A stretch of 64,000 bases of DNA, taken from positions 119,510 through 183,509 of the forward strand of contig NCSJ02000047.1 of assembly GCA_002812745.2 (NCBI GenBank). Reading direction: 5' to 3'. Both the position numbers and the translations under genes were made by a program. Source of the DNA: Scytalidium lignicola. Lineage: Eukaryota; Ascomycota; Leotiomycetes. Shown piece after piece: positions 1 to 23,723 of this stretch. A model generated the notes under the pieces. That model searched no databases and was not told the DNA's origin. It saw nothing but the letters and a program-made list of their open reading frames with translations. Numbering within the stretch: the first letter of the stretch is position 1; each line of letters begins with the position of its first letter.

Positions 1-991
1 GCATCCGGGACATTGCGAACGTGCGGTACGATAGATGCTCTTGAATTTTGGAGTTAACATGGAGATTCTGCAGGTGGGGTGGATTCTGATTTGACTAACG
101 CCGAAGAATGAGAGAAGATAACAGGAGCTTTTGATATATCAAGCGTCTGATGCATCACAGCTTCACTTGTATGGGAGAGATCAATAATCCTATGTAACAT
201 GTGAGCGCTAATATTGAAAATGTTACTTTGTTCAAGAAAATTAGGATAATCTGACATTCCAATTCTGTTTAGTTCATGAATCATTTCTTTGCCTTGGATA
301 GACAATCCCCCATGTGCCGGTGAAATAGAAGTCTATTGGATTTATCAGCTCCTATCTTGGCATCTGATGCTGAGCCGGACGTACAGCACTATCGGCGTAC
401 AAATTATTCTTGCTATGTGCCAATGTCACATACCGAACTCCGAGTTGATGGTAAAGCCGTAGAATGCTTGGGCTGTTGGCTATCTGGTGTAGCCCTTCGA
501 CTCCGATTAGACTCGCGAATTTGCCTGCCTTGAATAATTGCATGATATCGGACGCTTTTTTCACAAGACCCATGTGCTCTGAATATAGATCAACTAATCG
601 ATGAACTAGATCAATTTGCTGCATCGTATCTCGTAATATCTCCAAGTGTGCTTCATTGTCGCTGAAATCATCGGATTCAGGGCTAAAGGATTCATCAGAT
701 GGTGCCGATTTTGACGAGCCATGAATCTTGAACTCGCCAGTCTACGTATACGCTCCAAAAAGCTCCTCCAGATTTCCCTTGCCTTAGTCGCTTTAGATCA
801 ACGTGACCTACCAGATCTTTGTCTGATCTAAAGCGCTCGTCCAATTGGTTATCGTAAAATCCGCGGATAAGATGGGGCCAATCATTGTGGCCATCTTCAT
901 ATCAAGTCAGCCTGCTCCAGATTTTCAATGATTGCTAGATACACGTGCCAATTAAAGGGACTGCTCCCAAAATCTCTAACGCCTTTTCCAT
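1..991 (-). CDS. gliJ: GliJ/SirJ-like membrane dipeptidase, 3' end outside window
   Basis: Zinc-dependent membrane-dipeptidase family (peptidase M19). In ETP pathways this enzyme removes glycine from the bis-glutathione adduct. Exons read by phase and homology are 991-949, 894-738, 682-385, 332-256, 189-100 and 39-1 (continues left). Family signatures lie in order: the N-terminal metal motif GHNDWP, a GGAFWSVY block, GVEGLHQI with the bridging Glu, [10 protein letters not shown], and IIDLSHTSE followed by SHSSA. Introns 1 and 2 (948-895 and 737-683) start with GC instead of GT (GCACGT, GCGAGT); only these borders keep the conserved GHND and FWSVYVxCP blocks in frame. Intron 4 (255-190, 66 nt) has no stop and is a multiple of three, so it could be mistaken for coding. 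It is divergent from the MFS gene. Family assignment is strong; the GliJ role is inferred from the cluster. Confidence 0.85.
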
Positions 992-1745
992 GGGAATCTG
1001 TCAGCTGAAGCAGGATATTGAAAGAGCGTGTATATATTTAGATTAGTTGGCTAGGCAGATCCTCCCCAATGCAGGTGGTGTTTGGAATAGGGCCGCCAAA
1101 TTTAATCTTCCAAGCAAGGTAGAACAATTGTTTTTCAATCTATCTGCTGAGATAGTTTAAATGAGACTAAACCAAATGCTTGATCTCATAGCCATAAAAA
1201 GACGAGCAAATCGGACGAGGCACAGATAAAGCACTACGGTACTGCTGGTTTTATCCGCACACCATGCATGTAATCGCTCAATAAAGGTCGAATCTAAACC
1301 TAAATACACTCCGAGCTTACTTAAATATACTCCACAGTTTTGCTGGCGTCAGAACAACCCTCTTGGGTACCTAATCTCAAATATCACCATTTTTGAACTA
1401 GGTCGCCGCATTAACCGATATAGCGTGCCAGCAAAATGGCCCACAGCACAGTGTAGTGCTGACAGCATACATGGAACAGTGTTACATTTTCTTGTTAGTT
1501 CAAAGTAAATAGATTTGAAGTTATATGAATGTCTGGTTTGCATTAGGTTTGGCCTGCAATAAGTGACCGACAAGTCTCCGAAAATAAACCCTGTCTGTTT
1601 ATCAAGTTATCCGTCAAGGTTGATATAAGGACAACACGGGATCAAAAGTATTTCACAGTCGGCCTGTAAAAGTAATCATTATTATATTATTGAACTTTGA
1701 ATTGAACTTTGAATAAATCTTTGTGCAGAAGCAAGAATCTCTGCC
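992..1745. promoter_or_regulatory. Divergent intergenic region, dipeptidase / MFS transporter
   Basis: AT-rich spacer of about 750 bp between two divergent cluster genes, so it should hold both promoters. No coding signal is convincing. A perfect 12-bp tandem duplication (TGAACTTTGAAT twice, 1691-1714) ends 31 bp before the MFS start codon. Confidence 0.5.
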
Positions 1746-3529
1746 ATGGCGCCAACTCGAGGGCAATTGGTCCCTCCCTATCATCTGGGCGAACGACTAA
1801 GTACCAAAATGGACATGAACTTGATCCTTCTAGCCACAACACTTGTTAATTTCCTAGATCTCTTTCAGCTCTCGGCGGTTCTTTTTGCACTTCCAGATAT
1901 CCAGAAAGCACTGGGCTTTGTCTCTGAAGACATCAATTGGGTGTTGGTAGTTTACAACATCACCTTTGCCGCATTTCTCTTGATAGGAGGCCAGCTGGGA
2001 CAGAGAATAGGATTAGCAAAGACCTTTATTGCGGGGACAGCAATACTTACTGTGTCTAATGTTATCAATACAGCTGCGCCAAACAAAGCTTCTCTGATAG
2101 CAGGCCGTGCAATATCTGGGATTGGAGCAGGATTGACGGTAAGTGGATTCTGAGAGCAGCCTGGCAGATGCTATTTTTCATGTCTGAATGTCAAATTTAT
2201 CATAGGCACCTAATGGACTTGCAATCCTAAGCAAGACGTTTCCAGATGGTAGTTCACGCAACGCAGCGTTGGCTATCTATACAGCGTGCGCTCCTTTAGG
2301 ATCCACGATTGGAACTGTGGTCGGATCTCTCTTAGCGTGTATTTATTCATCCATTCCTCTCTTTCTAATATTTTAGCACATTTACTGATCAGTGGTAGCT
2401 TCACCGGCGGGTTGGAGGTCTATATTCTGGGTATGCCTCATTCTAACAGGATTGGCAACAGTTTTGGCCTGTGCCCTCCTCCCCCGTGATTCGAAGGGTA
2501 GTGACGTGCCAATCGACATACTAGGGTGTGGGGTGTTCACTATTGGAATTGCCCTACTGGTGTACGGTCTCAATGATAGCTCTAGGAGTGGCTGGACTTC
2601 GGCATCGGTGCTCGTTGGCGTGATCCTCGGTACGTGTATGTTGGCTACGTTTGTGTTTGTCGAGACTAAAGTGACCAACCCGGCCGTCCCCCGATATGTC
2701 TGGAAATCTGGAACATTTCTCCTCATGATGGTAGCTGTATTTGCATTTGGTGGCAGCTTTAGTTCCTGGTTCTTTATTACCACACAGCTGTGTGTAAATT
2801 TATTAGGTTATACCCCGGTGCTTACTGCAGTATATTTCTTGGTATGTATCTTACTCTATCGGTTACCATATCACTCAGTGCCTGTCAATTGCCATGTTTA
2901 AAACTAAATTTGACTAACGTTTCTTATGAAAATAGCCAGGTGCCTTCTCCGCAATTGTAAGTGGCGCTATGGCAGCTCCAATGGTCGGGTTCATCGGAGA
3001 AAAGGGAACACTTGTCATAGGTCTGGGAGTGACAGCCGCTGGTGCTGTGGCCTGGGCGTTTGCAACACCTGAACGTGCTGGTGGAACTGGCCATGGAGGT
3101 GGATATTGGTTCTCCATAGTAGCCACTATCATATTTGTTTGTGGTAGCCCGGTTGCGATGGTCCCAGCTCAAAGTATCCTACTTCGGGAAGTCAAAACAG
3201 GTAACCATGCGGTAGCAGGTGCATTATTCAACACTGCTTATCAGGTCGGTGCAAGTGTTTTGCTCGCAGGAGCTAATGCTTTGATGAATGGGCAGAGGAG
3301 TTCCGCCAGGAACACTATGATTATAGCCATGGAGGGTTACCGTAATGCCTTTTGGCTATTGACTGGCATTCTTGGAGGAGGAGCAATAGTCATAGCTACT
3401 TGCTACTGGCCTCCGAAAGTCGAGCAGAAGGACCGACCGAAGGAAGACGCACAGTCAGAGGAGCCATCACCGATGGTACAAGGCTCGCAAGACTGGATCG
3501 CGCAGGACTCAAGTTCACACATTGTCTGA
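1746..3529 (+). CDS. MFS transporter, probable ETP exporter (GliA-like role)
   Basis: Major facilitator superfamily protein of about 520 aa from four exons: 1746-2138, 2206-2338, 2399-2841 and 2936-3529. The first membrane helix starts near residue 25 after a short hydrophilic N-terminus. The region DINWVLVVYNITFAAF...GGQLGQRIG followed by GRAISGIGAGLT matches the drug:H+ antiporter layout (helices 2-4 with the loop 2/3 motif). The later half is strongly hydrophobic and the C-terminal tail is acidic and hydrophilic. Introns 1 and 3 have good GTAAGT/GTATGT donors. The intron 2 border (2339-2398) is my best choice because it keeps phase and the GWRSIFW block. By position it should export the metabolite and protect the producer, as GliA does. 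Length and loop pattern suggest a 14-helix DHA2-like protein, which I did not verify. Confidence 0.88.
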
Positions 3530-4038
3530 TATTTGTTACGCTTGTTTTTAAGGCTGTTCTAATTCCAGTTTGATTCTCATGGCATTTTGGTGCGGCTGAT
3601 CTCTGTCAAATGTAGCGATTAATGCAGTACATAAGATACACCACAATGTAGTTAATTGACTATTCTATTTAGCTGCAGGTTAAAATCAGCCTACCTCATT
3701 ATTGATATTTGCAAAAACATTATATTTTAAAACATAGCCTTTCGGAAATATTGTTGGAGAATTATCTGGGTTGTACGGTCGATTACGTACGGTGGCGATA
3801 TTAACTACTGATCAAACTGTATGGCCATGGAGTGCTAAGTTCAACTAACTAATTAGAAGGTAGGGTACGGTAGAATAAAGGAGAGAGAGAGGGAGGCCTG
3901 TATATTGCAGCTACTGCAGCTACTACCATATATATATGTGACCACGTGATATCCCTACCACAATATGAGCCGATTTATCAACTCTATTGATATACTTCGT
4001 GGAACCGATCTCTCAGATGAACCTTCAATATATATCCA
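3530..4038. other. Convergent intergenic spacer
   Basis: About 500 bp between the 3' ends of the MFS and first methyltransferase genes. It is AT-rich with a short GA-rich stretch near 3880-3897 and a TA repeat near 3930. No gene seen. Confidence 0.6.
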
Positions 4039-4949
4039 TTAAGATGAAGTAGGCTTTCGTGCCCAGGCAAGGTGATAATAATACACATTTCCCACGGTGC
4101 GTAGCTCCACTTCTAGTTTCTCTCGGAGCTCATCAAATTCCTGGCTAGTTGCTTGCCCTGGCTTATCTATGATGCATTGATTAACGTTAGTATGGGATCA
4201 CTCTTCAAGTGCCTCGACGACCTACCAGCCAACATCATTTTCATGCCTTCTAGGAGATGAAGCAGAATCACCACTGCTCTGTCTCCTTGCTCCTTATCTT
4301 CCGCTGCAGCTCCTACCTTGATTGTCTGGATATCCTGGTGGATATCTACGGCACCAGCCTCTTTCAACCATGGGAGCAAGAAAGATCCCGGATTGGGCTG
4401 GTTTCCTATAGCAGCCCAGGCATTGACCATCATGTCTCGGAATTTCATAAACGCCTGATGATCAGGGCCTTCTTGAATTGAAAGCATGTTTCCCTCATGA
4501 AGCTCAATAAATCCACCGGGCTTTACACATGCAAAAAGCAGCTTGACAGCTTCCTGGGCAGTGTCATCAGAACCGACAGTTAGAACGAAACGTTGATGTA
4601 CGACGTCAAAGCTCTCTTGAAAGTCAGCCGGCCAGGGGTCGAAGATCGAATGAGTGGAAAAGTGCACATTGGAAGGCCGTAGCTCTTCAGGAACAAAGTG
4701 TTGTGGAGCTATATCAGTTCCAAAAAGTGCTGTAGAGGGCGGAACCGACTTCGCGAGATCGATCAACCAAGTCCCCTCTGCAGTGGCGGAGTCTAAGATA
4801 CGAAGATTCGGTTCCATTAAATCTATCGGGCAATAGAGAAGTTTTCCATGCATCGCTGTCTTGACTAGATCATGTTGGGTACGTAGACGGTCGTACTCGC
4901 CTTGATGACGAGGGCCGCGATATGTATCCCGTGCCACAGTTTCTGCCAT
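4039..4949 (-). CDS. SAM-dependent methyltransferase, GliN-like (copy 1)
   Basis: Class I SAM methyltransferase of about 283 aa in two exons, 4949-4226 and 4166-4039, with a good GTAGGT donor. The N-terminal TYRGPRHQGEYDRLR block, the SAM-binding motif LRILDSATAEGTWL, an acidic FGTDIAP strand end, FDVVHQRFVL and VKPGGFIELHE are typical of the UMTA/GliN group of fungal secondary-metabolite methyltransferases. In gliotoxin, GliN N-methylates the amide nitrogen, so N-methylation is likely here but O-methylation cannot be excluded. The start codon at 4949 gives the expected N-terminus. It faces the glutathione transferase across 302 bp. The last exon (WARKPTSS then stop) is short but in phase and natural for the family. 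Confidence 0.87.
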
Positions 4950-5251: not shown

Positions 5252-6152
5252 ATGTCTCTGTCCACTGAACACCTGTCAATTCGCCCGCTCATCCCTGAGG
5301 ACAAACTCGTCCTCTATGTTAAGAAAGGTAGGGAGCATCAGTGTTTTTGTTCAATACTAGTAGGGGGCCGCTAATACATGTTACTCTAATCACCATTTAA
5401 ACATATTGGTTTCCAGTCCCTTGTTGATTGTGTTTGTAGCTCAACTGTATCGCTAACGATCTGCAGCCAGCCCAACATCGACAGCGAACTCCGTGAAACC
5501 GCTGATGCTGATTGAAGCGCTGGAAATCCCTCACAATATTCACATCATCACATCGACTAGTAATGAAAAATGGTTCCATTCTGTAAATCCCTACAAAATG
5601 GTCCCTGCTATGGAGGATAGCCAGATCTATGAGATGAATGGCCTGTCACAGAGACTGAACATCTTTGATAGCTCTGCTTGTTTGACATATCTGGCGGAAA
5701 GGTACGACACAAATGGTATCTATAGGGGGAAGGATCTCTGTGAACGGACAGTCATTATGAACTGGCTGATGTCCTATACTGCTGGGCTGGGCGCAACTGG
5801 GAAAATATGGCTCTTGATGAAATCACCCAAGGAAGTGGATATAGGGGAGTCTTTATCAGTGCTACTCAAATACATTAAGGCGGAATACAACTTCCTGGAG
5901 ACTCGACTGAACGAGCCTGGTCAGAAGTTTGTTGCTTTGCCAGATAGACCGACCATCGCGGATTTTGCCATCTTGCCCCTGGCAAATGAGACAATCGCGG
6001 TATCAGCCAAACTCGACTTTAATGAGTGGCCGAAGTTGAAAGCGTGGAGTGAGAGGGTTAGCGCGCTCCCACCGGTGGCGAGGGCATTGCATAGAATTGC
6101 TCGGTTTGGTTTGTCCGAGGAGGAGCTCGCCCTTCTAGATAACAAGAACTAA
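5252..6152 (+). CDS. gliG: Glutathione S-transferase, GliG-like
   Basis: GST-family protein of about 253 aa in two exons, 5252-5327 and 5467-6152 (intron 5328-5466, donor GTAGGG, acceptor CTGCAG). The thioredoxin-fold half starts LVLYVKK, continues with SVKPLMLIEALEIPHNIH and has the NPYKMVPAMED segment with the cis-proline. The helical C-terminal half has the conserved DRPTIADFAILPL motif. In gliotoxin biosynthesis the GliG transferase adds two glutathiones to the oxidised diketopiperazine; this is the sulfur source. The cluster context makes that role likely here. The start at 5252 is the only ATG that keeps the beta-1 strand in frame. The intron is long (139 nt) compared with its neighbours. 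Confidence 0.9.
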
Positions 6153-6271
6153 AGTTGTTAAATCCAGAATAGTTGGCATTTGGAGATTATATAATTTAGA
6201 TAAGTCAAATAATGTCGCGAATGTTCTAGATAATAAATATTCACCGGAACCATAATTAAACATTAACCTTC

Positions 6272-8095
6272 CTACGGTATTGGCCGTAGGCTGATTCGAA
6301 GGTCAGATATGGGAACCCATATGTTCCTACTCGATTTTTGATTCATATCCTTCCTCAGCTCGGTTTCTGACAACATTATCTCATAACCTTTAAGCAGCTG
6401 GTAGACAAACTGCTTGAGCATAGTTTCAGCAAAATGCTTTCCAAGACACCTCCTTGATCCAAACCCGAAGGTAAATAGATTGTAGCGAAGCTTGTTATGA
6501 CCAGTGTCAGCGATGCATCTCATTTGGGGGTGTTCTTCCTCACCTCCGTAGGGGACAGATGTTGCAGTCGGTAAGGTTTGAAATCCAGACTGTCATTGCC
6601 CCAGAACTCGATATTGTGGTTGATTGACAATGTGTCCACAACGACACTTGTCTATTTTAAAAGTAAGAAAATTTGTCTGAAAATGAACTCAGTAACTAAC
6701 ATTCGGAGGGATTGTGTATCCTCCTAAGACCTTCGTCTGCGGTGAACTTTCCGGGATCGTAAATACTGTTAGTGTTTGGTCAGTGATTTTGGGGCCGTAG
6801 ACATGACAAATTAACAACATACTCGTGAAAGGCCGAAGTCGTGCTGATTCTAAGAAACTGAAATGTAATAGGGTATCTTTCCTGCCACAAAACTCTACAA
6901 AGTTCTCAGAACTGTTGGCAATTTCCTTCCGAATCTGATGTTGTACACCAACATCTTTGGCAAGAAAAACGACTAGCCATCCGAGAACATGTGTCGACAC
7001 GTCTAGATTAGCAAACAATATTTCACTCATGGTCTGTATCATCTGTGGGCAAGATATTAGAATCATCCAAGAGAGTACGAGTTTGTAGGGAGCCAAACCT
7101 CCTTTTTTGAAACTCTTCCATCCTCCACAGCTTTCCACACACTCACAATTGGTGGTAGTGGGTAGCAGAAACTTCGTGAGTTAATGATCCGCTCATTGAA
7201 CGTAGTCCAATCTGATTCAAATTGCTTGAACTGTCGATATGTTCTTGGTCTTAGCCATCGATATAGCTTGAATCGATATAATCCACCTAACAAGACATTT
7301 CCCATCAGTGCGAGGCTTCGCTGCCCCAGAGACCACAGCTCTTCCTTTTCAATCTCAGTCAAGGGTCCAAATATATACTCCGCAGTAGTCATGAAGGGGA
7401 ATCTAGCGGTGTTGGTGGCGTGCAGCTCAATATATTCTGCGTCTTTGGCTTCAAGCTGTTGCAAATACTTAGTCACGGCAAGTTCTAGCTGAGGTGAAAC
7501 CATTGAAACGGCACGATGAGTAAAGTATGGATCAAATTGGACCCGTGTTTGTTTCCAGCGTTTGCCGTTGATGAGGCCCATGCAGTCCCCAAGCAACTGA
7601 TGGAACAGCCACCCACCATTGCTAGAGGGGGATTTTGAGTGGACAGAAGAGTCAGTATAAAACGTCTTCACATCCTCAGGCTTTGTAAGAACACTGAGCT
7701 TTATCAATCAGTCGAAATCCTTTTGTGCTGGGATTTTGGCGAAATTTACTGGGGCACCTACATCTCAGGGATAAAGCCCGACCAGATTCGATAAACTGCA
7801 CCATACTTACGCCAATTCTCGCTGGACTCGCGACCACGCAGGAACTTATCTAAGCACTGCCCATCGACGGATTTCCATTGCGGACCTGAAATTAGCTGCC
7901 CTTGAATGTTCGAAATCGGATAGATCACATTTGTGATCTTGCCTCCGAGGAAGTATGAGCCTGTGAAAATTCCTTAATAGTGGATGGTTGTGAACTGACA
8001 ATACTATTGACAATAAGTTCTTTCTTTTGAAAAATACGCCAGGCTAGAATAATGGTAACCAGGATCAGAATATGGATGTTATTCAGTGAATCCAT
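6272..8095 (-). CDS. Cytochrome P450, GliC-like role
   Basis: Membrane-anchored P450 of about 517 aa in six exons: 8095-8005, 7960-7762, 7693-7099, 7042-6701, 6651-6544 and 6490-6272. It has an N-terminal hydrophobic anchor (IHILILVTIILAW), then VLTKPEDVKTFYTDSSVHSK, the I-helix region SEILFANLDVSTHV, the K-helix ExxR (FLESARLRP) and the heme loop FGFGSRRCLGKH with the cysteine ligand. All introns are in phase; the first is very short (44 nt). ETP P450s oxidise the diketopiperazine alpha carbons to create the electrophile attacked by glutathione, and this is the only P450 in the window. The I helix lacks the usual A/G-G-x-D/E-T-T pattern (NLDVSTHV), which also occurs in specialised fungal P450s. 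The C or F subtype cannot be told by eye. Confidence 0.86.
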
Positions 8096-8792: not shown

Positions 8793-10273
8793 TTATTTAG
8801 ATCGAGATGGGTTATATACCTCAGGGTTAAAATAGGCCGTAACATTCCATTGATTACGATCGGAAGCCCAAGATATATAGGTATGGAACCCCAATCCAGT
8901 AACCAGCTGTCGATGCTTACTATTATATAACTGATAAGAAACTGGTAGTTTTACAGATAGAGGTAGAACGCACCATAATTTTTGGACCGAGTTGTAATAA
9001 GAGCCCGTTGTTAATTTCTTGCCCCTCCTCTCAAGATACTCAGAAAGACCTCGAGCAATCTGATCATCATTCTGCGCATAATGGCGAACAGGAAGATAGA
9101 CTTTAGTTTTAGGAATGGTGGCGCCACATTTCAGTTCAAAGTAGTAAAGAATGCCCCCTGTGCGATGGTCTTTTTCTGGGAGCGGATGATTGTCCATATG
9201 CTCATCCGAGCTCAAACCGAAGACTGAGTACCATAGTTCCCGGAGAGAGTCTTGCTCCTCAAAAGTCTTAGGGGCTCTTCCTCCTAAAGTTAACATTTCG
9301 ATCACGCTCTGCAATGTCGTTTCTCGGGATCGAACATAGATCTTCAGCCGAGATCGAAGAGGATCTAAGCAATCAATAGCCATTATTTCTACTGCGGGTT
9401 GGAGTTGTATAGGAAGCGTCTCAATAAAATCAACTAGCACATCAAATGAGGTGAGTAGAGCGTCGGCTGGCCCAAGAAGCTTCCGAATTGCGTCCTTGAT
9501 GATAGTAAAGTTTGAATTGCCCTCAGCTAAAGCCCTCCAGCTAGGCAAGTAATATTGCTTCACAACAATGTCCGTTTCCAGCAAGTCAAATGCTATGAAG
9601 ATTTGTGACTGAGGGATGTCCGTAGTCAACTCTTTTTTGTCGGGCAGATTTCGTGAGAGTAACAAGTGCTGGAAGTGTCTATGCAGGTATAAATCCATTT
9701 CTGGGGCCAAAGGAAGAGCCTCTCCGAGAAGCCGTATATTAGCAGCGGTATTAATAGGATCGACAGTCTGACCGGCACACTTGCCAATTGGCTCAACTGA
9801 ATATCGGACACTGGGGTTGATCTTGGATGAAGACCAACACCAACTGAGCTCGACTGGAGTATGGTCATCCGTCATGAAGCTCCTCCAAAGCTGAGGAGCT
9901 CCAGTTCCACGAGGATGAAAACCCAAAGATGGAGCAACAGACGTACAAAAGAAACCTTCATGAATTTTGCTTGAGTGCCTAGTGTAACCAGCCATGGCCA
10001 TCATTTCAGCTAACATCGTCCCGATTTCGTTGTTCCATAATAAGGAGTCATTGTATGATGATTGCGTGTCTATTTCTTGTGTAGACGAATTCTATGATCA
10101 CGGTCAATTTGTAAGCAGACTCATTCAGATCATGTATCCTACCTCATCATGACCTAAATTGAAAGTGCTTATTCCTTTCAGAAGTTGTTTACTATTAGAT
10201 ATGAGTCTCTTTGGCCGTATATTGAGGCATGTTACTGGGTAACCTACACGAAATTCATAAGTAGAAAAGCCAT
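8793..10273 (-). CDS. DMATS-type aromatic prenyltransferase
   Basis: ABBA-fold indole/aromatic prenyltransferase. The solid part is 10091-8793, with MTDDHTPVELSWCW (the conserved Glu that contacts the aromatic substrate), KVYLPVRHYAQNDDQIARG and LGFHTYISW (diphosphate-binding Lys/Arg/Tyr positions) and the usual C-terminus NVTAYFNPEVY. The first ATG of the continuous frame is 10016, but homologous sequence (LLWNNEIGTMLAEM) starts earlier. I therefore propose two small 5' exons, 10273-10248 and 10191-10143, for about 457 aa; these are phase-consistent but tentative. In the sirodesmin cluster the homologous enzyme SirD O-prenylates tyrosine before NRPS assembly; related enzymes prenylate tryptophan or a finished diketopiperazine. 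Substrate and timing are not visible here. Confidence 0.87.
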
Positions 10274-11030: not shown

Positions 11031-12395
11031 ATGTTATCTTTACGGTGCAAGGAGAGAAATGAAACCCTCATTCCCAGTCTATTGAGTCAACATGATGCAG
11101 TTCTTGCAGGGGACGTGGACACTATCGATCTCAGTACTGCGGAAAACTGGTCGGTTAAGGATTCATTGCTCAATAGGTTACAAGATACATTGGATAGCTT
11201 GTCCGATGAGGTACGTTTTGCAAGATATCAAAATGTTAGGGTTTCATGATCATAACACGAAGAATAATACTTAGGATCTAGCCTATTCTTCTGGCATCGG
11301 TGGTTGCCTTAAAACGAGAAAGCTGATGTCGGAATTGCTCAACCATAATTTCCGTCCGGTTGAGAGCGTTACCGCTTCTCACATTGTCCTTGCAGCCGGA
11401 GGCAGCTTTGCCTTGACTGCTCTCATGGAACAGATATGTGATCCTGGGGATGGGATCCTAATCGCAACACCATACTGGGCAGGCCTTGACATCTCGATTA
11501 GCATCCACTGCCATGCCAGAATTATTCCAGTCAATGTGCCACTGGATAAGTTCTTCTGTTCTGAAAGTATTCAATACTATGAATCATCCCTGGATAATGC
11601 CTCTATCCCGATCAAAGCCATTCTAATCTGCAATCCGCACAATCCGTTGGGACAGTGCTACCCCAGAGAGACGATACAGGCCATGCAAGACTTTTGTAAG
11701 CGTAAACAGCTGCACTATATTTCGGACGAGGTATATGCTCTTTCGCTACACCAGCCTGCTCCTGGCGGCTTTGTTCCTTTTGTATCAGCGCTAGAGATAA
11801 AAAGCAAAGAAATTAGTGATCAAGTACATATAATATATAGTCTTAGCAAAGACTTTGGATGCAGCGGAATTCGTCTGGTGAGTAATGCATGTTAACTGTC
11901 CACAACTGAATTATGCAATCTCACTAACAACGACTATCGTAGGGGGCCCTTATTACTCAATCTAACAATGCTGTTCGACTCAGTGCAGCGTTGAGTGTCC
12001 ACAGTCAGGTCTCAACTTTGTCCACTTCTCTAGCAACTAAGAAAATCTTAACGCCAGATACCGTCCGGCAGATTAGCGAGAAACGAGGGCAAAAGTTGAA
12101 TGAAGCATACCAAGTAATTCGTTCTTTTCTGGAGAAGCACAACATGGAGTTTATTCCTGTATCCTACGGCATGTTTGTCTTTGCCAGAGTTTGCAAAATC
12201 AGCGACATCGATGCTGAGCAGAAGCTGTTGGGCTGCCTAAAGGCCAGAGGAGTATCGGTGTCGACGGGAACAAGTTACCATTTTCAAGAGCCTGGGTGGT
12301 TTCGAATTTGTTATGGAGTACCATTAGATCAGTTACATGAAGGTCTCAAAAGACTTGAATGTGGCGTGCAGGATTATCTATACAATGGAACGTAA
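11031..12395 (+). CDS. gliI: PLP-dependent aminotransferase-fold C-S lyase, GliI-like
   Basis: Fold-type I PLP enzyme of about 411 aa, related to ACC synthases, in three exons: 11031-11210, 11275-11877 and 11943-12395. Donors are GTACGT and GTGAGT. Visible features are AAGGSFALTALMEQI (cofactor phosphate region), ICNPHNPLGQ with the conserved Asn, ISDEVYALS with the Asp that pairs with the pyridine nitrogen, and SLSKDFGCSGIRLG with the Schiff-base lysine. The C-terminal part ends with FRICYGVP, the substrate-carboxylate Arg region. In gliotoxin the GliI enzyme cleaves the C-S bonds of the processed cysteine conjugate to give the epidithiol. Neighbouring GST and dipeptidase genes support the same role. 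On sequence alone it could be called ACC synthase-like. Confidence 0.88.
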
Positions 12396-12999: not shown

Positions 13000-15900
13000 C
13001 TACAGAAGAGACCATAATCTTCTAATTGTTTCTCCAATAGCACTGACTGTCGTTGGATCGACGAGGGATTCCATGTATTCTATCTCACAAGTCATACATT
13101 CCTCCTCCTCATTGAATTCGACTAGTAGCGGAAATTTGGCCCCGGTCGTTCTTACAGGGACATCTTCCACAGTGATCCCTGGGAGGGCAAACCCCTTTGC
13201 CACCGAATCCTCAATTCTGTTGTATACGACCATCACCTGGAAAAGCTCATCCTTGCCGGAAATACTGCGAATTTGCTTGAACGGGATGGAGTGAGCTAAC
13301 GCATCTCGGATCAATGTCCTCACGGAGCCAATCAGATCTGAAAAGTTATCCAAAGCCGTGGAAGATATCTTGATTCGCACCGGCAGTCGATCAAGAAAGA
13401 CGCCAAGGAAGTCTTCCGTGCCAGGTTCGGAACGATCAATGTGAGGTATTCCAATGGTTACATCGCAGATCCCTTGAACTTCTGCTAATGCCAATGCGAT
13501 GAGCGACACATATGTCTCCATGGATTCTGTTAGACGTTTATTTCTTTTCAATGAAAAATTATCAAAAGAACCAACATAGCTTCTTTGATTTTGAATCGAT
13601 TCAAATGGCAGATTCGGGAGGCTGGCCAAGTGATCCCGCCAGTACTGACAATTCGAGTCTTGCATAGGCGGCGGAAGTTGGTCAGACTTCCATTTCGCCC
13701 AAATTGCATAATTTGGCTTTAGGAATGTTGATTTTTCGGCATCTGGTGATCTCGCCTCCAAGATCTGAAGATACTCATGCTGAATTTTGAAAAAGAACAT
13801 TTTAATAGCTACTTTGTCTGTAATCGCATGATGTTGGACAAGCACGATGTCGACATGGTCAAGGTTTTGATCAAGGAGAATCCTGGTCAGAGGACCAACT
13901 GACAAATCGAATGGACGGTTGGCAAAACTGCTGGTATCGATATTGGATTGTTTGTTTCGTGTGACTTCACATGGATTACAAGATTGGAACCGTATAACCT
14001 GGTCGTCGATTATTCTAAAACAGCTTTGGAGTATTACCTCATGCGATATAACAGTGGCAATTGCTTTTTCAAGCGCCGTAATGTTCACATTACCATTCAG
14101 ACGCACTTTAGAAGCAACATTAAATGCCTGGGGAGAAGGCGACGATATTGACAACTTAACTAACTCTTCCTCCAGATGGGTTACAGCTGTATAGGGTGGT
14201 TGAATCATCTTCCAGGACAACTTGAATGAATATTCCTGAGACAGTTCTTCTTTGAGAAGATGTTTCGCAATTAGGTCGCTCAATACAGATAACTTGGTAT
14301 TCCAAATGAACAGCTTCAACGGTAATTTAGTATTCATCTTGCGGCAGACTATCTGTGCAAGTCTGATCTGTGAAATGGAACTTCCTCCAAGGACCAGAAA
14401 GTCTGATTCGGCCGTAATCTTCACGAGTTCAGATAGTCCGAGCGTCTCCTTCCAAGCTTCGGCCAGTAAACACTGGAGAGATGTGAGTGATGATCCTGGC
14501 CTCTGTTCTTCTACCGAGGGTGCATAGGACTGCAGTTTTTTGCGGTCGAGTTTCTGGTTAGGCATTGTGGGCAGACTCGGCAGAGCCATAATCGTCGAAG
14601 GGCACGCATATTCGGGCAACTTGTTTCGTAGAGCTACTTGAATGACCGAAATATCAATAGTTTCGGGTTCTACAAATGCTATAATGATGTCGCCGCTCAC
14701 AATGGCAGCTGCTCGGCGAACTTCGGGGCTGGCCATACAGATAACATTCTCAATCTCGTTCAACTCCACACGAAACCCCCTGACCTTGACTTGGTGGTCA
14801 AACCGCCCTAAAAATCGAGGCTCCATATCTTCCGTCCAGACTGCGCGGTCTCCTGTGCGATATATGCGGTATCCAGGCACAAATGGATCCGGCCCAAAGC
14901 GGGCCTGTGTTAATTGTTCCAAGTCAGGGCCAATATACCCGTTGGCAATTTGAATGCCGCTTAGGCAGATCTCCCCAGGCACCCCAATCGGAACTGGGTG
15001 GTTTTGTGGATCGAGGAGATAGACTCCAACACGAGGGATTGTTCGTCCTAGAGTGACCTCTTTCTGTGGCTGTAGTGGCTGGAACAAACAGCCAATGGTA
15101 CATTCGCATGGCCCGTAGGAGTTATAGACAGTTCGGGTGCCCGCCCAACGGTCTGCTAGAACCTGGGGCACAGCTTCACCAGCGAACAGAATGGTATCGA
15201 GGTTAGGGAAGTCGTCTGGGTCACAAACAGACAGAAACGACGGGGTAATCATTGTAGCGTGTACTCTTGGTAATTGAGTGAATGGATCGGCAGGATCAGC
15301 CAGGACAAGAGTTGCCCCGTAACATAGTGTTCCAAAGATCTCAGCCTGGTTGACATCAAATCCTGGCGAAAACATCTGCGCATGACGTCGACCTGGCCGA
15401 GCATCCATACGAGCAGGACCATACGATAGGTATGAAACCACCGATTGATGCTGTATGCAGACACCTTTGGGGATACCGGTGGAACCAGACGTGAAGGTAA
15501 TATATGCGGTATCTTCTGGCCTTGTTATTGTCCCTAGCCTGAGATTTTCTTGGTCGGTTGATTCGGCGAGGATTTGGTGCAGAGAGATGGTACTATGGAA
15601 AATATCTCGAAATCGGCCATGACAGTCTTCATTAGGGAAGATACACAGTCTCACTTTGGCAGTTTCCATCATGATCCGCATCCGATCAACTGGTAACTTC
15701 GTATCCAGTGGCACATAGGCAGCCCCTGCCTTTATTACAGCAAAGACGGAAATGAGCCAATCTATACTACGATCACTCAAGATGGCTACTGCCTCCCCTG
15801 GGCGGACGCATCCTGCAATCACGCCTGCTACATAGTTTCCCAATTGATCAAGTTCTTGGTATGTGATTGATCTTGTGAGAGACTCGATCGCCACAGTGTT

Positions 15901-18900
15901 CGGCCACTGATCAACGCCTATCTCGAAACTATCCTTGAGATTGGTGGGACCAACGTACGGGCTCATCAGAGTTGGCGAATTGGTGGTCAGGGAAAGGAAC
16001 TCGCAGGGCTCCAGCATTCGCTGACGCACTTCGGCTATAGTTTGACATTTGGTGTCAAGAAATGCAAGGAACAGATTTCGAAAGTGAACCATCATCCTCT
16101 GTATCACTGGCTTCGTGTATATCGTCCTATCAAACAAAGCTCGGAACTTGAGATGATCCTTCTTTCGTCGGATCAAGACGGTGAGACCGAATTCTGGATT
16201 ATCAGTCCGATCAAATTGCCACCCAGAAGAATCAAACCCAGGCAAATCATACTCCAGGAAGAGGATAGTCTGGAAAACCCTTGATTGGCTTCCAGGCATG
16301 ATGTCCTGCAATGCATCTGCAGCCGACCACTGGTGCGAGCTAATTTGGCGGATAAGTCTCTGAACATGAGCCAGGACTTCGACCTTTATCTTGAGGTTGG
16401 CCAAACTGATGGGAAACGGACAAGTATTCAATATTGGACCAACAATCTCGTTAATTCCCGGGAGTGGAAAGTTGCGTCCTGAAAAGACGGTCCCGAAGAC
16501 GAGCTGTTCTTGCGATGTGTATGAATGTAACAAGAGGGCCCAGGCAGCATGGAGCACTGCGGCCGATGTAGCTTTGTTCAAACTGCATATTTGCTCAATT
16601 TGGGACAAGGAAAGTCTTACATCAACCTCCGCGTCTCCGAATCCGTTGTCTGTCGCCATGTCGGTTGGTTTAATCAGACTCAGAGGTGGAGCGTCGGCGA
16701 CCTGGGACAGTGTATCTCTCCAGAACTTCCTTCCTTCAGTGACTGTCTGGTTGCAATATTGTGGTAATTGCTGTGAAAACTGCCAGAATTGCAGAGGATT
16801 TTGTGTCAACTTTCCGCCTCGCAGAAGTGTCTGAACTTCCTCGATGATGTTACCCATAGACCAACCATCTATGAGGCTATGATGAACGAGCCAGAGCAAA
16901 GAGGCCTTGGTGCCACCCTGACAAATAATTAATCGAAATTTGCTGTGCGGACGAAACACATTTGTATTTTCATCCTGTCTGGTGGATTTCAATAAACGAT
17001 CAGATTCATACTTTATGGTCATAGATAGCTCAGTATCTGACACCCAGATCTCTGCCCAGTTGTGGTGATAATCCTGACATATCTTCTGAACGCCACTCAT
17101 CAAGTCAAAAGATGTTCTAAAGATAGTATGTCTCTCTAAGACCGCTTTCCAAGCATTCTGAACCTGTTGATTGTAACCAGTTTCGGAATTCCAGGGAAAC
17201 ACGATGGACACCAACATATAGTTCGTTACAGGCTGGCGAATAGAGGAATGGATCATCCCTATTTGTGTCATAGTCATGGGTGCCGTTATTTCAAAATCAT
17301 CTTGGATCTCATTTTTCTGGATCTTCCTGATTCCCGAGTCTGGGACCCAGACACGTTCGAGCCGCTCAGAGAGAGCACTCAAAGGAATTGGTTCGAAGAT
17401 TTCTTGAAAATGAAGACTCTTCCCTCTCTGATACAAACTTGACAGAAGCTTTACTGCCAGTAGAGAATGTCCCCCTAGATCCCAAAAGCTCTGGTCCATG
17501 GAAACTGCCCCTTTTGGAAACGCTAATACCTCAGCAACTGCCTCCTGCAATATTGCCCTGTGAGTGCCTTCTACTGTACCAGTTCCCAAATACTCATATT
17601 GGTCCTTGAATGTATCTTTCAATCTTTTTATGTCCACCTTGCCATTTGACGTCTGAGGTAGCTCTGCGTATGCTACAATTTCATCTGGCACCGCGAACCT
17701 ATCGTACTTCTGGGATAGCTGTCGTCGTAACTCCATCACATCAACATGCTCCGGCGTGATTGTTGCCACAAGCTTGCCTTTGTACATGAACGCGGCTGCT
17801 GAGTGAATACCAGGATATGAGAGTAAGATTGGGAGAACGTCCATGTCGAGGTTGACAAGGTACCCGCGGTTCTTGACCATGCTATCTTCTCGACCACAAA
17901 ATACGAGCCCATCTACAGTCCTACGAGCTCGATCAAGTGTGCGATACAGTCGGCGGCCATGCCATGAAACAAATCTCTGAGCAGTTAAATGCTCGNTTTT
18001 TGTAATATCCAGAAGCCAGGCCTGGCCCGGCGATGTATATCTCTCCCTCGCTGGATTCCTCCAGATTTTCATTTAGAATCAGCAGTTGTGTATCGGCCAT
18101 TGGCGTGCCTAAGACAATTGGACATTCGGGTTGTAACTCAGCCATACTCACACAAACAGTAGCTTCGGTGGGCCCGTAGCAGTTGAAAACTCGTCGGTCT
18201 ATACTGCACCATTTTTGTACCAACCCTGGATTTGGAGATTCTCCGCCGATGAAAATGGATTTGATGGTCTGGTAGCGTTCTGGGTCCCCCAGAGATCCTA
18301 GAACAGAGGGCGTTGTAGGAAGAATGGTGCATTTCTGTGCATCATCTAGGACTTTGCCAGGCTCGGTCAAAATAAGCTCGCCGCCGTTGTAGAGGGTGCT
18401 GAAGATAGCACCCCAGGCAGCTGTAATCCGAGTTAGCATATGAATGTTTTTTTCTATCTCATGAAATTATTAGATCCTACTCACCGTCGAAAGCTAAGGA
18501 GAATAATAACAACACCTTATCTTCACTACTAACCCCCATGTTAAATGGCATTCCTTGGTCGTTCCCCTGCCGGACATAATTTTCAACACATCGGCGGGGT
18601 ATGACAACCCCCTTGGGAGCCCCCGTTGTACCGGAGGTAAAGATGATGTACAATGGTTCTTCAGCGTTCAGGATTCTGTCAATCTTCTCCATCACCAATC
18701 CGCTGTCTACCCGGCTCTCCGAAGTATTATAGACGTTACGAATGTCTTCTGTTTTAATCACTGGAAGAACGCCAGTCCCGAAATCGGTCTGTGTGGACAT
18801 AATCACGAGCTTTGGCTTGATTGTTTGCAAAACCGCATCAATTCTAGCCTGGCTCCAGGATTCGCCGTCCATGGGCACAAAGCATACTCCAAGTCGGAGC

Positions 18901-19130
18901 AGTGCTATAATAGATGCCACACTCTCCAGGCATCTTGAGAGAAAAATTGGGATTATATCTCCAGCACATACTCCACGCGAGTTGAACAAGGAAGCTAGAG
19001 AAAAGGAAGTCTCGTCGAGCTCTCTGTAAGTTAAGCACCTATCACCCTCTGAGCAGGCAACCGACTCGGGTCTCTCAAGTGCATGCCTCTTGCTCAGGGC
19101 AAATAACGACTGCAAATTGATTCCCTCCAT
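13000..19130 (-). CDS. gliP: Dimodular NRPS for a diketopiperazine, GliP/SirP-like (A-T-C-A-T-C)
   Basis: Nonribosomal peptide synthetase of about 2,021 aa. Exons are 19130-18485 and 18420-13000; the intron has GTGAGT and a GCTAAC branch site. Approximate domains are A1 1-490 (FTSGTTGAPKG; GYYK near 356), T1 with GGHS near 534, C1 590-1040 with HHSLIDG near 728, A2 1050-1500 (FTSGSTGIPKG, YNSYGPCECT, YRTGDR), T2 with LGGSS near 1562, and C2 to the end with HHAITDK near 1746. The N at 17996 beside a T run breaks the frame; without it the gene reads through, so I treat this as an assembly error, not a pseudogene. Two modules condense two amino acids and cyclise them. GliP and SirP end in a third T domain, but here the stop at 13000 follows C2 directly. 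Binding-pocket residues read by eye are A1 D-A-G-I-F-G-C-V-C and A2 D-V-A-I-L-A-S-I-G; substrates are not assigned. Confidence 0.92.
17996..17996. other. Ambiguous base at a homopolymer inside the NRPS A1 domain
   Basis: An N next to a run of six T shifts the frame between GYYK and the following RFVSWHGRR block. Removing the N makes the two exons a whole number of codons (6,066 nt). Confidence 0.85.
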
Positions 19131-19550: not shown

Positions 19551-19676
19551 TTGTACATGTTCCGGCCGATAGACTAATATTTGTGTTATGGCCGATAGAC
19601 CAATATATGCGATAGCCTAATAGGTCAGCTTACTGTATTGGCGAATCGGCGTGCTGAAAGCCTAATATTGGTCGTT

Positions 19677-19694
19677 GATGATGATGATGATGAT
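19677..19694. repeat. (GAT)6 microsatellite
   Basis: Six perfect GAT units in the NRPS upstream region. Confidence 0.9.
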
Positions 19695-21082
19695 ATTTAT
19701 TTGCGTCCTAGCGGGTCAGGTTCGAGACTTGCTGCCCTGTGACTTCCTGAAAGTATGAGGACGTGCTAAGCTTAGGATTTATATACAAAGTACTATCTAA
19801 AAGAGAGCCAAAAACCACAAGGAGCGAAAAACTTTTCTTTATAGACAATCTGAAGTCTTTAATCTCACGATGTCATATTCAATAGCCTTATAAGTACGTT
19901 TATGTTAGAAATGCTTTCTTAAGTTTTCAAGAGCATTAATGACTTCTTATAATCGGTCAAGGTTCATCAGATATTTTGTGTTTATCGAAAGATGACGTGA
20001 TACGAAGGTGTAATACTAATATAGTAAGGGAAAATCTTTTCGGAGGGGATATACTCTCAAAATCTACTCTCAAAATCTAACAACACTCGGGCTAACCAGG
20101 ACGCAAACATTCATTAGCAAAGTTGTCGGCCGAGGCTCGAATTAAAGTTTCAGGCCTTGGTAAGGTTGTACTACTATATATGATTTTGAGAAAGCAAATT
20201 CAGTGATACTATATCCTTCTTGAATATGGTGTTGAATATAGTTCGAGCTTACAATCCATGGCTTGAATTTATGGACCGATAATTGTAATATGGTGAGATC
20301 GGGTCTACAGAGCCGTAAATGTAAGATCCGAGAACCGTTCTATTGATCCGTAAATGGCCTATAAATATGACTATACTTGCCCTCTGTACAGTATTTAATT
20401 CAGTAGTTATTTGCAATATATTCTATAGGAACTTATTACGATCGGTGCAATTGACCTGTGTAACAATCCTCATCTGTCCATTGTATCACTCATGCAATGC
20501 ACAGTTTAATTAAAACACTAGTTTTATTAACTCATGAATTCTTGAATAACTAAAACTGATTATGTATATAAGAGCTTAAGCATAATAGCAAACATACTAA
20601 TGTTAGTATAATTTTTTTCAAGTAGTACAATTCTCAAACCAAGGAAGGATAGAACTCATCTCTGTAAGTGCGGGATCATGATTGGCTGATATAGCATGAG
20701 CTAAGGGGGGAAATAGCATTTAGCCAATTCCCAGCATGTTCGGTGACTAAACTCTTACACTTATTACACTGCTGGATATTGGCCGATATAGAGTAAACGG
20801 CATTCGAAGAATTTAAGAAATATTGCTACAGCATATCAAGTTCCCATGTAGGTTTCTTTATTCAAGTATTTACTCTCCGTAGCCGGTACCTGGAAAGTAT
20901 TGTCGTTATCTCACTATACACAAAATAATGCCTGCCCTCGGCTCCATCAGTGATATGTATACCTTGTTAGACTGGTGTATTGTTAAACAATATTTAAGTT
21001 AATCACACCCCTCAAGACCGCTTTCAAATTGTTTCATCCTGTTGCTGAGTAGCAATCCCGTCTGATCAATTATACGGTGAAA

Positions 21083-22107
21083 ATGTCTGTTACCGCCCCT
21101 GCTGTGCTTTCTGAGCTACAAAAAGAGGATATCGGAAGTCGATATTTCCTACCTCGTAATGTTGAAGAGGCAGAGCGCATGCAAAACCAACATGAATGGC
21201 TGAAGGGATGTGCTAATGGATTGGTTCTGGCGCCAATTAATTTGGAACGTCGAGGAATGCGTGTCCTCGATTCCGCTACAGCAGATGGTGGGAACAAGTC
21301 CCCCCCATAAATCATTTACGTTGCTGAAAATCGAAAGGGTACTGGATACAGGATGCCAAATCCATCTTCCCAGAAGACACAGAATTTGTGGGTTTCGATA
21401 ATGCGTGAGTTCACTCGACCCCAGAAAAGGCTTACTGAACCATGGGCTGACAATCAGTTTGAAAAGTCCTGAGGGATATCCACCTCTCAGTCCCCCTTTA
21501 TCTATTGTCAAACAAGACTTAATTGAGGATTTTCCTGCGGAGTGGAGAAATAACTTCGATTTTGTGCATCAGCGCTTCGTCACTCCATTGTTCGCGACTG
21601 AGGAAGTTCCGCTGGTGCTTCGCAATCTTATCGGGTGTATGAAACCGGGAGGGTGGATTCAACTCGTCGAGATGGATTTCCAAACTCCTGTTTCTGAGCC
21701 CATCGAGTTGTGCCCAGCGGTCCAGACGGTTCATAAACTGACATCCTCAGTGGTATCTGATCCGCTTGCCGCTACAAAGCTGGCTGGACGATTAACTCAG
21801 GAAGGCCTAGTGAATGTGGGATACAAGACAGTCGACATGATAGCAGGTTCCTCTAACCCAGACCCCGTAGTAGGGGAACGAGGACTTCGCAACATGTTGT
21901 CTGTTCTGGCCTATTTCCAGTCGGTGTCCAGGTAAGGGTATCTTTCTTCTGAATTGGGACTGAACGCTAACGAGATGCAGCCCGGAAAAGTTAGGGATCA
22001 CCGCTGAGGAATGGAAAGAATTACCAAAGAAGTTTACTGAAGAGATGAAAGCCCATAAAGTCGCTCTGAGAGTGTACTTTGTTTGGGGCCAGAAGTCAGA
22101 AGCCTGA
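21083..22107 (+). CDS. SAM-dependent methyltransferase, GliN-like (copy 2)
   Basis: Second UMTA/GliN-type methyltransferase, about 290 aa, in four exons: 21083-21287, 21338-21404, 21458-21931 and 21981-22107. The N-terminal RYFLPRNVEEAERMQNQHEW block, GLVLAPINL, the SAM motif MRVLDSATADG, FVGFDNA, FDFVHQRFVT and MKPGGWIQLVEMDF follow the same order as copy 1 but differ a lot in sequence, so this is not a recent duplicate. The start at 21083 is preferred over a GTG two codons earlier. The last intron (21932-21980) has a clear GCTAAC branch point. Together with copy 1 it suggests two methylations, for example both amide nitrogens or one N and one O. Which enzyme does which cannot be seen. Confidence 0.86.
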
Positions 22108-22704
22108 TGAAACCCGGAATCAAGAATAAGAATTTGGTGGGCTTTCTATACGAGAGAGCTTTCCATGAGAAAATTAAATCACATTTAACCTTTGCATTAT
22201 ATATTATGGTATTAAGGACAGTTACTTTGTCCGTCTAGCTTGAAAACTGTCCAGCCTAGTCAGGGCGAGTGAAATTCAATCTGTGCTGTAATGTATCGAT
22301 CAACATATTCTTTAATGAAGTGCAAGGTTGCTTAGTAAAGCTTTGAATATACGTGATACTTGCAAATGTTCCCACTGGTCAGATTACGAATTTCGGTTCG
22401 CAGTACTCGTGTAACAAAGCTCCTACAAATATCTTGCTCATCTGCCCATCAAGGTATTGAACAAGGATCCAGATGACGCTTCCAGACCGCACATGACAAA
22501 CAAATCATTTGTGACAAAAGAACTAATGCATGTTAAACACGCCGGCGGAGACTATGAATCGGTTCATAAGATCTCAGAGCGGATCACAGCTCAAACCCCC
22601 CTCCCCTCTTTTTTATATTTCATTATCTTTGATCTTAAGTTATTTAACGCGTGAAGCATTGAAAGGCTAACCTCTAAAATCACAAATCAAAATCATCAAC
22701 CAAA
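22108..22704. promoter_or_regulatory. Intergenic, upstream of the GliT-like gene
   Basis: About 600 bp. It holds the 3' region of methyltransferase 2 and the promoter of the oxidase gene. Nothing else recognised; the open frame at 22457-22654 has no family resemblance. Confidence 0.5.
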
Positions 22705-23723
22705 ATGTCTAATTCAGCAGACGTCCTCATAATTGGTGCTGGTCCAGCTGGCCTCACGGCAGCCCTTACTCTAGCTCGCCAGCAACAGAGCTCGATCGTT
22801 TTCGATGAGGGGACCTACCGAAACGACCCAGCAGAGTATATGCACCTGATTCCTGGGTTCGATCACGTCAAACCTTCAGAATATAGAGATGCTGCGAAAA
22901 CCAACATTCTCTCTAACTACCAGCATGTCACTGTTCGGAAAGAGGCGGTTTCCAGCGTTCAAAAGGAGGCCTTGACTGGCACCTTCACACTTACTGATGA
23001 AGCAGGCGAGACCTGGAATGGTAAAAAATTGATATTGGCAAACGGGGTAGAGGATATTAGCCCATCTATTGATGGGTATGCCGAGTGCTGGGGGAAAGCA
23101 ATGTATGTGATCAACGATGCGTGTCTGCTGTGAACTGTCTGAAGTTGACTGACCGATTCAGATTCCATTGTCTCTTTTGCAAAGGGTACGAAGAACGAGG
23201 GAGTGCTTCCGCCGGTGTCCTCGCTATTGGCGGATTGTCTAAGGCCCCTTTGGCACTACACGTCGCCCGACAGGCATCCTCACTCAGCAACAGCGTAACA
23301 ATCTATACCAACGGCTCCGAAGATCTAGCCAAGGACATCACTGCCGGACTCGGAGCAGCTACTGCAATGAAAGTTGACTTTCGTAAAATAAAGCGTCTTT
23401 CCAAGGAGTCTGAAAAGTCGTCAATACGTCTCGAGTTCGAAGATGGGAGCAGCGTGGTCGAGGCTTTTCTGGCGCATACGCCAGACACCAAGCCTCGTGG
23501 GCCTTTTGCTGAGCAACTCGGATTGGAGCAGACGCCTAGTGGTGACATAAAAGCAGGGCCTCCATTCTACCAGACCAATGTTAAGGGAGCATTTGCAGCA
23601 GGCGACAACTGCGGGATGATGAAGAATGTACCTCATGCTATCTTTTCGGGTTCGTTGGCGGGGATGGGAGTCTCAATGCAGATAGTTGCTGAAACTTTAG
23701 GACAAGTGCCGTTATTTAACTAG
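22705..23723 (+). CDS. gliT: FAD/NADPH dithiol oxidase of thioredoxin-reductase fold, GliT-like
   Basis: About 319 aa in two exons, 22705-23102 and 23162-23723. The N-terminal FAD motif is VLIIGAGPAGLTAAL, the redox pair is CLFC (residues 136-139, formed right after the intron), and the C-terminal AAGDNCG motif binds the second FAD site. The NADPH half keeps VLAIGGLSKAP but has no obvious GxGxxA pattern. This fits GliT-type oxidases, which use oxygen instead of NADPH. They close the transannular disulfide and protect the producer. Length matches GliT and HlmI. This is the last recognisable gene of the cluster. Confidence 0.9.

What the first reader, a model, noticed from the sequence alone, without database searches (positions are those of the whole stretch)
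1..23723. ETP-type (epidithiodiketopiperazine) cluster with an embedded DMATS prenyltransferase
Ten adjacent genes match the gliotoxin/sirodesmin logic: NRPS, P450, GST, dipeptidase, C-S lyase, dithiol oxidase, exporter and two methyltransferases, plus an aromatic prenyltransferase. Families are read directly from motifs. The combined pathway is inference from the characterised gli and sir clusters. The product is probably a prenylated, methylated sulfur-bridged diketopiperazine; this gene set and order is not one I recognise.
Basis: partly seen in the sequence, partly recalled or inferred. Interest (0 to 1): 0.9.

Follow-up and report, generated by a model that had tools for sequence, protein, structure and literature searches.

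The report
Clapurine-type sulfur toxin gene cluster
A mould's DNA carries a set of neighbouring genes that very probably makes a small sulfur-bridged defence molecule with a five-carbon tail; the same kind of gene set is already known from ergot fungi, so it is a new member of a known kind, useful mainly because it points to possible genes behind a family of compounds called thiosilvatins.

Summary
Window 1-23.7 kb, near the end of a Scytalidium lignicola contig, holds all ten families named. The cluster continues left of the window with a Zn2Cys6 regulator, a probable GliK-like gene and the rest of the dipeptidase: twelve genes, Z-K-J-A-N-G-C-D-I-P-MT2-T. The set is not new: it is the published Claviceps purpurea tcp (clapurine) set plus one methyltransferase, slightly reordered. 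The prenyltransferase has residues reported for tyrosine O-prenyltransferases, so O-prenyl-tyrosine is the likely building block. The NRPS reads A-T-C-A-T-C; GliP's third carrier domain was not found in it, in the other 30 sequences of its clade, or in 22 Claviceps-side ones. Its clade includes P. roqueforti, P. brevicompactum and T. virens, species reported to make thiosilvatins, so a thiosilvatin-like product (O-prenyl-Tyr-Gly, N-methylated) is my best guess. The second-residue code does not separate Gly from Ser, and listed producers also fall outside the clade. Nothing was shown chemically. The NRPS frame changes at an ambiguous base (17996), left unmended. Verdict: new member of a known kind, moderate interest.

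The parts
1..903 (-). J: N-terminal part of an M19 (GliJ-like) dipeptidase; C-terminal part lies left of the window (L004:9556-9999 -)
   Evidence: Pfam PF01244 E 1.1e-23 and 8.5e-13 on two pieces, 2.7e-26 on the outside piece; N-terminal end by eye
1746..3526 (+). A: MFS exporter
   Evidence: PF07690 on three pieces, E 1e-12 (over the cut-off), 5.6e-7 and 1.4e-7 (below it)
4054..4949 (-). N: methyltransferase 1, GliN/TcpN type
   Evidence: Methyltransf_23/25; 71 relatives, some named N-methyltransferase tcpN (72% and 49%) or gliotoxin biosynthesis N-methyltransferase (51%) by their sources
5252..6149 (+). G: glutathione S-transferase, GliG type
   Evidence: best solved relatives are GliG chains, E 2.4e-53; one weak other match in this genome, E 1.1e-5
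6275..7808 (-). C: cytochrome P450, in the position of TcpC
   Evidence: PF00067 E 3.1e-9 and 0.0035 on two pieces, none on 7066-7707; FGFGSRRCLG; the depositor's model P0001 carries PF00067; GliC/SirC orthology not tested
8796..10016 (-). D: DMATS-fold aromatic prenyltransferase, SirD/TcpD (tyrosine O-prenyl) type
   Evidence: PF11991 E 1.2e-96; E81, F165, K330 at the FgaPT2 89/174/343 positions
11205..12392 (+). I: PLP-dependent C-S lyase (GliI/TcpI position)
   Evidence: PF00155 E 8.5e-26 and 2.7e-9; SLSK; start by eye
13003..19130 (-). P: dimodular NRPS A-T-C-A-T-C, no third carrier domain found; frame changes at ambiguous base 17996
   Evidence: Pfam domains on the pieces; no GGxS motif in three frames 3' of it; only its own two PP-binding matches listed for this contig
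21083..22098 (+). MT2: second, divergent methyltransferase between P and T
   Evidence: 25% identical to MT1, E 3e-12; next match in the genome is MT1, E 4.1e-7
22705..23720 (+). T: dithiol oxidase, GliT type, CLFC
   Evidence: GliT 4ntc E 3.8e-32 on the first exon; CLFC at 23169-23180

Best explanation
A clapurine/thiosilvatin-type epidithiodiketopiperazine cluster of Scytalidium lignicola. D puts a dimethylallyl group on the tyrosine oxygen; P joins it with a small residue (glycine more likely than serine) and releases the cyclic dipeptide with its terminal C domain; C oxidises the ring, G adds glutathione, K, J and I trim it to free thiols, T closes the disulfide, N and perhaps MT2 methylate ring nitrogens (or MT2 methylates sulfur), A exports, Z regulates. 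Expected product: dithiosilvatin or its bis(methylthio) relatives. Shown here: gene families, set, order, prenyltransferase residues, NRPS domains, clade. Inferred: every reaction and the product.
For: Set Z, K, J, A, N, G, C, D, I, P, T (K by motif), the set reported for tcp, whose pathway joins O-prenyl-Tyr and Gly (PMC4938161, passages). DMATS and NRPS rows share a contig length in 22 cases, this one included, out of 120 DMATS rows compared with 72 NRPS rows, with matching divergence (Mantel r 0.87, p 0.0001). Tyr O-prenyltransferase residues met (rule from PMC11443524, passages). The NRPS clade (31 sequences, support 1.0) holds P. roqueforti, P. brevicompactum and T. virens, 3 of the 17 taxa listed as thiosilvatin producers (PMC6950259, sections); a fourth, P. 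crustosum, has an N relative at 73%.
Against: The second adenylation code, DVATLASIG, differs from DVATYIFIA of the Claviceps NRPS I take for TcpP (a Gly pathway) and equals that of 5 of 9 three-carrier NRPSs, two of them named SirP by their sources; SirP uses serine. Producers also fall outside the clade: F. chlamydosporum has only a 44% DMATS hit, and Sarocladium (listed: S. kiliense; sequenced: S. strictum) sits on the Claviceps side. The Phe and Lys residues stand in 119 and 118 of 120 aligned rows, so they mark the class, not this clade. Sequenced strains and producing strains are not the same. The NRPS may be truly frame-broken.
Confidence: 0.68

Rival explanations
1. A sirodesmin-branch pathway: O-prenyl-Tyr joined to serine (phomamide scaffold), giving a prenylated Tyr-Ser ETP.
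For: A2 code DVATLASIG is shared with 5 of 9 NRPSs that keep the third carrier domain, two of them (P0150, P0174) named SirP by their sources. SirP adds serine (PMC8191991, passages).
Against: By eye I saw no acetyltransferase or second P450 among the stop-to-stop pieces (no dedicated search); the clade includes three species reported to make Gly-derived thiosilvatins.
Confidence: 0.2
2. The cluster is no longer functional: the change of frame in the NRPS is real.
For: The frame changes at 17996 in the first module; a defective step has a precedent in Claviceps (TcpC, PMC4938161, passages).
Against: The base is an N in an Ion Torrent assembly with 17 single Ns in the window (PMC6256649); by eye I saw no other break, but exon joins were not tested.
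Confidence: 0.1
3. The prenyltransferase acts on an indole, giving a prenylated Trp ETP.
For: Pfam calls the family Trp_DMAT; the best solved relative is named Dimethylallyltryptophan synthase 1 (8day, E 1.6e-50).
Against: F at the position of FgaPT2 Lys174 and K at Gln343, the pattern reported for Tyr O-prenyltransferases (PMC11443524); it sits in the tcpD position; the NCBI tryptophan dimethylallyltransferase model scores far below its cut-off (129.6 against 740.75 bits).
Confidence: 0.04

Closest known systems
Claviceps purpurea tcp (clapurine) cluster
   Same: Z, N, J, K, A, G, C, D, I, P, T all present; one P450; G-C-D-I-P in the same order by gene code; the C. purpurea NRPS P0165, which I take for TcpP, also has two carrier domains only
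   Different: One extra methyltransferase between P and T; K and J swapped and N next to G; NRPS 43% identical; different A2 code
Uncharacterised clusters of Penicillium, Talaromyces, Aspergillus, Trichoderma, Paramyrothecium, Niveomyces
   Same: Same NRPS clade, 53-72% identical; DMATS and N relatives on contigs of the same length in part of them; antiSMASH labels a P. expansum cluster clapurines at 72% (PMC11766614, passages; that it is the same cluster is inferred)
   Different: In four gene models (P0132, P0135, P0141 of this clade and P0172 outside it) T is fused to the N-terminus of the NRPS, so T lies directly 5' of P on one strand; here T is on the other strand with MT2 between
Sirodesmin cluster (L. 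maculans)
   Same: SirD-type prenyltransferase and ETP core
   Different: sirH, sirB, sirE-type tailoring genes not seen here by eye; serine as second residue
Gliotoxin cluster (A. fumigatus)
   Same: Core G, C, I, J, K, N, P, T, Z, A logic
   Different: No prenyltransferase in gli (PMC4938161); GliP has a third carrier domain (PMC9030297)
Boydine cluster (Scedosporium apiospermum)
   Same: ETP core with an extra methyltransferase of unknown role (PMC12881047, passages)
   Different: Phe-Phe scaffold with a PKS; the word prenyl does not occur in the paper's text

Membership tests
ETP biosynthetic cluster | Dimodular NRPS | tested here: met
   A-T-C-A-T-C on the pieces
ETP biosynthetic cluster | GliG-type GST | tested here: met
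   E 2.4e-53 to GliG, next family 2.4e-11
ETP biosynthetic cluster | GliT-type dithiol oxidase with CxxC | tested here: met
   E 3.8e-32 to GliT, CLFC
ETP biosynthetic cluster | GliI-type C-S lyase | tested here: inconclusive
   PLP aminotransferase fold, nearest solved ACC synthases; no GliI reference at hand
ETP biosynthetic cluster | GliJ-type M19 dipeptidase | tested here: met
   PF01244 on three pieces
ETP biosynthetic cluster | GliK-type cyclotransferase | tested here: inconclusive
   recalled motif, and AIG2_2 at E 0.035
ETP biosynthetic cluster | GliC-type P450 | tested here: inconclusive
   P450 family met on two of three pieces; type not tested
ETP biosynthetic cluster | Sulfur-bridged diketopiperazine product | not testable with these tools
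   needs chemistry
Clapurine (tcp) type | SirD/TcpD-type tyrosine O-prenyltransferase | tested here: met
   residues E81, F165, K330; activity not tested
Clapurine (tcp) type | Same gene set and order | tested here: inconclusive
   set met plus one gene; order partly rearranged
Clapurine (tcp) type | Same A2 specificity code as the Claviceps NRPS | tested here: not met
   DVATLASIG against DVATYIFIA
GliP-type NRPS | Terminal third carrier domain | tested here: not met
   none found

The most novel reading that the evidence does not exclude
This clade of 31 related NRPSs marks the missing gene cluster for the thiosilvatins, known chemically since 1981, and its NRPSs (with the Claviceps-side ones) make and release diketopiperazines without the third carrier domain that GliP is reported to use, so that the terminal C domain alone suffices in this branch; the extra S. 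lignicola methyltransferase adds a second N-methyl or an S-methyl step.
Probability: 0.4. Interest if true: 0.55.

Novelty: new member of a known kind. Interest (0 to 1): 0.36.

Why it matters
It gives a concrete, testable gene candidate for a compound family reported from 17 taxa (PMC6950259), for which my paper searches listed no assigned cluster (open-licence papers only). It also offers natural NRPSs in which GliP's third carrier domain was not found, which bears on how fungal cyclodipeptides are released.

Tried and rejected
Rejected: 'unknown gene set' (it is the tcp set plus one gene). Rejected as first choice: a prenyl-indole product. Tried: finding a third carrier domain 3' of the NRPS or elsewhere in the contig; none listed. 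Tried: solved relatives of the methyltransferases; MT1 matched only 3mgg (E 4.8e-6), MT2 nothing better than E 0.061. Tried: NCBIfam (bacterial and archaeal models), of use only for the prenyltransferase. Tried: the paper on GliP's terminal domains; not held, so that point rests on a review (PMC11610984, passages). Tried: PMC10512393 (passages), which names saroclazine only in its reference list. Not done: the relatives' genomic context could not be fetched, so equal contig length stands in for linkage; a search of the genome for a second NRPS of this kind did not complete. The Mantel test does not separate joint inheritance from both genes following the species tree. first gave wrong prenyltransferase positions because the crystal chain is offset by six; one search corrects it.

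Rows dropped before counts: of the 120 listed NRPS relatives (of 3,227 found among 7,992 scored) I used P0121-P0193 (73, including S. lignicola's own model) and left out P0194-P0240 (47, by their source names partly bacterial, some fungal, among them P0196, named a gliotoxin/aspirochlorine synthetase). Of the 31 in the clade, 8 are metagenome rows and two (P0166, P0173) are fragments with one carrier match; of the 22 Claviceps-side ones 8 are metagenome rows. A missed last exon in such models would hide a third carrier domain. In one search I used 57 of 120 DMATS rows, 72 NRPS rows and 65 of 71 methyltransferase rows; 15 contig lengths held all three. One search used the 22 pairs.

On re-reading my calls I changed: two three-carrier NRPSs, not one, are named SirP; producers outside the clade are now told; statements made by eye are marked so.
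Full report
Where it is. The window is the last 64 kb of a 183,509-base contig of a 46.9 Mb genome. NCBI proteins on a contig of exactly that length, 95%, 100% and 99% identical to the DMATS, NRPS and methyltransferase 1, are named Scytalidium lignicola B7463_g3510, g3512 and g3508, so the source is that fungus. A draft genome of it was read by Ion Torrent (PMC6256649, whole text).

What is there. I fetched 30 kb to the left. The nearest 10 kb (L004) contain the rest of the dipeptidase, a gene with the motif YFAYGSNM that I read as GliK-like (motif recalled; Pfam only AIG2_2, E 0.035), and a Zn2Cys6 regulator gene. To the right follow a glutamine-synthetase domain (26249-27070 scanned) and a short-chain dehydrogenase (29563-30147), which I take as outside. 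The cluster is thus Z-K-J-A-N-G-C-D-I-P-MT2-T.

Is it an ETP cluster. The GST is GliG-like by a wide margin, the oxidase GliT-like with CLFC, the dipeptidase M19, the lyase a PLP enzyme of aminotransferase fold, the P450 recognised by Pfam in two of three pieces.

Known or not. Claviceps purpurea has a published cluster tcpZ, N, J, K, A, G, C, D, I, P, T (gene codes CPUR_02671 to 02681), with a sirD-like prenyltransferase gene, one P450, and a pathway from O-prenyl-tyrosine and glycine; its P450 is reported defective (PMC4938161, passages). The present cluster has a counterpart of each plus one more methyltransferase. So the set is known.

The prenyltransferase. Aligned to FgaPT2, it has Glu at 89, Phe at Lys174 and Lys at Gln343. 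PMC11443524 (passages) reports the Phe and Lys as shared by 4-O-dimethylallyl-L-tyrosine synthases. They stand in 119 and 118 of 120 aligned rows (the window and 119 relatives), so they mark the class rather than this clade.

Relatives. The searches found 151 DMATS relatives (120 listed), 3,227 NRPS relatives (120 listed) and 71 relatives of methyltransferase 1. Fifteen contig lengths also hold the N methyltransferase (on part of the rows). Where sources give locus tags, P, D and N follow in that order two to three numbers apart: Penicillium sp. IBT 16267x 004410, 004412, 004415; P. maclennaniae 007563, 007565, 007568; Talaromyces atroroseus 08292, 08294, 08297; P. taxi 006242, 006239, 006236. 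That fits I between P and D and C and G between D and N, as here, but is inference. In the NRPS tree the window's protein is sister to a metagenome sequence and lies with Paramyrothecium, Niveomyces and Trichoderma in a 31-member clade (support 1.0), the rest of which is Penicillium, Talaromyces, Aspergillus and unnamed rows; Botrytis, the one named Leotiomycete I recognise there, is far away. That is a patchy distribution; I did not test transfer against loss.

Product. The clade contains P. roqueforti, P. brevicompactum and T. virens, 3 of the 17 taxa listed as thiosilvatin producers (PMC6950259, sections); P. crustosum, also listed, appears in the methyltransferase search. Against a clean match, listed F. 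chlamydosporum has only a 44% DMATS hit, Sarocladium (S. kiliense listed, S. strictum sequenced) lies on the Claviceps side, and the other listed taxa did not appear under their names in these lists. Thiosilvatins are Tyr (or Phe) plus Gly, often O-prenylated and N- and S-methylated. Two methyltransferases here, against one in the tcp cluster whose clapurines lack N-methyl groups (PMC4938161), fits that, though MT2's role is a guess. The second adenylation code is DVATLASIG in 29 of 31 clade members (2 DVATFASIG); 15 of 22 Claviceps-side NRPSs have DVATYIFIA (6 DVATYIAIA, 1 with a gap); DVATLASIG also occurs in 5 of 9 three-carrier NRPSs, two of them called SirP by their sources, and in 3 of the 11 remaining ones. 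Codes were read by alignment to the window's motifs, with positions recalled from the PheA scheme, and I had no verified SirP or GliP reference. Glycine or serine therefore stays open.

The missing carrier domain. GliP ends in C-T3 and both domains are reported to serve cyclisation (review PMC11610984, passages; the primary paper is not held). Here the protein ends 37 residues after a conserved stretch of the last C domain, with two carrier domains, no GGxS motif in three frames downstream and only its own two PP-binding matches listed for the contig. By my own profile, 9 of 73 sequences have a third carrier domain; 0 of 31 in this clade and 0 of 22 on the Claviceps side do. Pfam agrees on four checked: three PP-binding stretches in P0150, two in the C. 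purpurea NRPS P0165, one each in P0123 and P0126. Limits: two of the 31 are fragments, 16 of the 53 are metagenome rows, and a missed last exon would hide the domain. The C. purpurea cluster makes diketopiperazines, and P0165, which I take for TcpP, is without the domain. PMC9030297 (passages) already notes GliP homologues lacking domains, so absence as such is not new.

What may be particular to S. lignicola. In four relatives' gene models the oxidase is fused to the N-terminus of the NRPS (P0132, P0135, P0141, P0172), so T lies directly beside P on the same strand. Here T is on the other strand and MT2 lies between. MT2's best match elsewhere in its own genome is methyltransferase 1 (E 4.1e-7). 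Whether relatives have an MT2 was not searched.

Weak points. No chemistry or expression; linkage in relatives rests on contig lengths and locus tags; the NRPS frame changes at base 17996, an N, and was left as it is; paper searches cover open-licence papers only, and the statement that no cluster has been assigned to thiosilvatins rests alone, of which I read listings and passages of a few papers.

Noticed in passing
window 17996: Single ambiguous base where the NRPS reading frame changes; one of 17 single Ns in the window.
   Followed up: partly
L002 (C217:27242-28321) and L003 (C271:6688-7794): Two further DMATS-family genes in the same genome, E 6.9e-67 and 9.3e-29; the latter shows one stop inside the match, which may be an intron.
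   Followed up: no
P0001 and P0024: Depositors' gene models fuse the DMATS with the neighbouring P450 in S. lignicola and Niveomyces, probably an annotation artefact of close tandem genes.
   Followed up: no
L004:2728-4222 -: Two overlapping open frames with single Ns left of the regulator gene; no Pfam hit.
   Followed up: partly
L006:632-2675 - (C421, left of the cluster): An integrase-like open frame, as of a retroelement, about 27-29 kb left of the window (read by eye).
   Followed up: no
L005:4704-6899 + and 2772-3653 +: A long open frame of a fungal transcription-factor type and an MFS-like frame, both read by eye, taken as outside the ETP cluster.
   Followed up: no
window 26249-27070 -: Glutamine-synthetase catalytic domain just right of the cluster.
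   Followed up: partly
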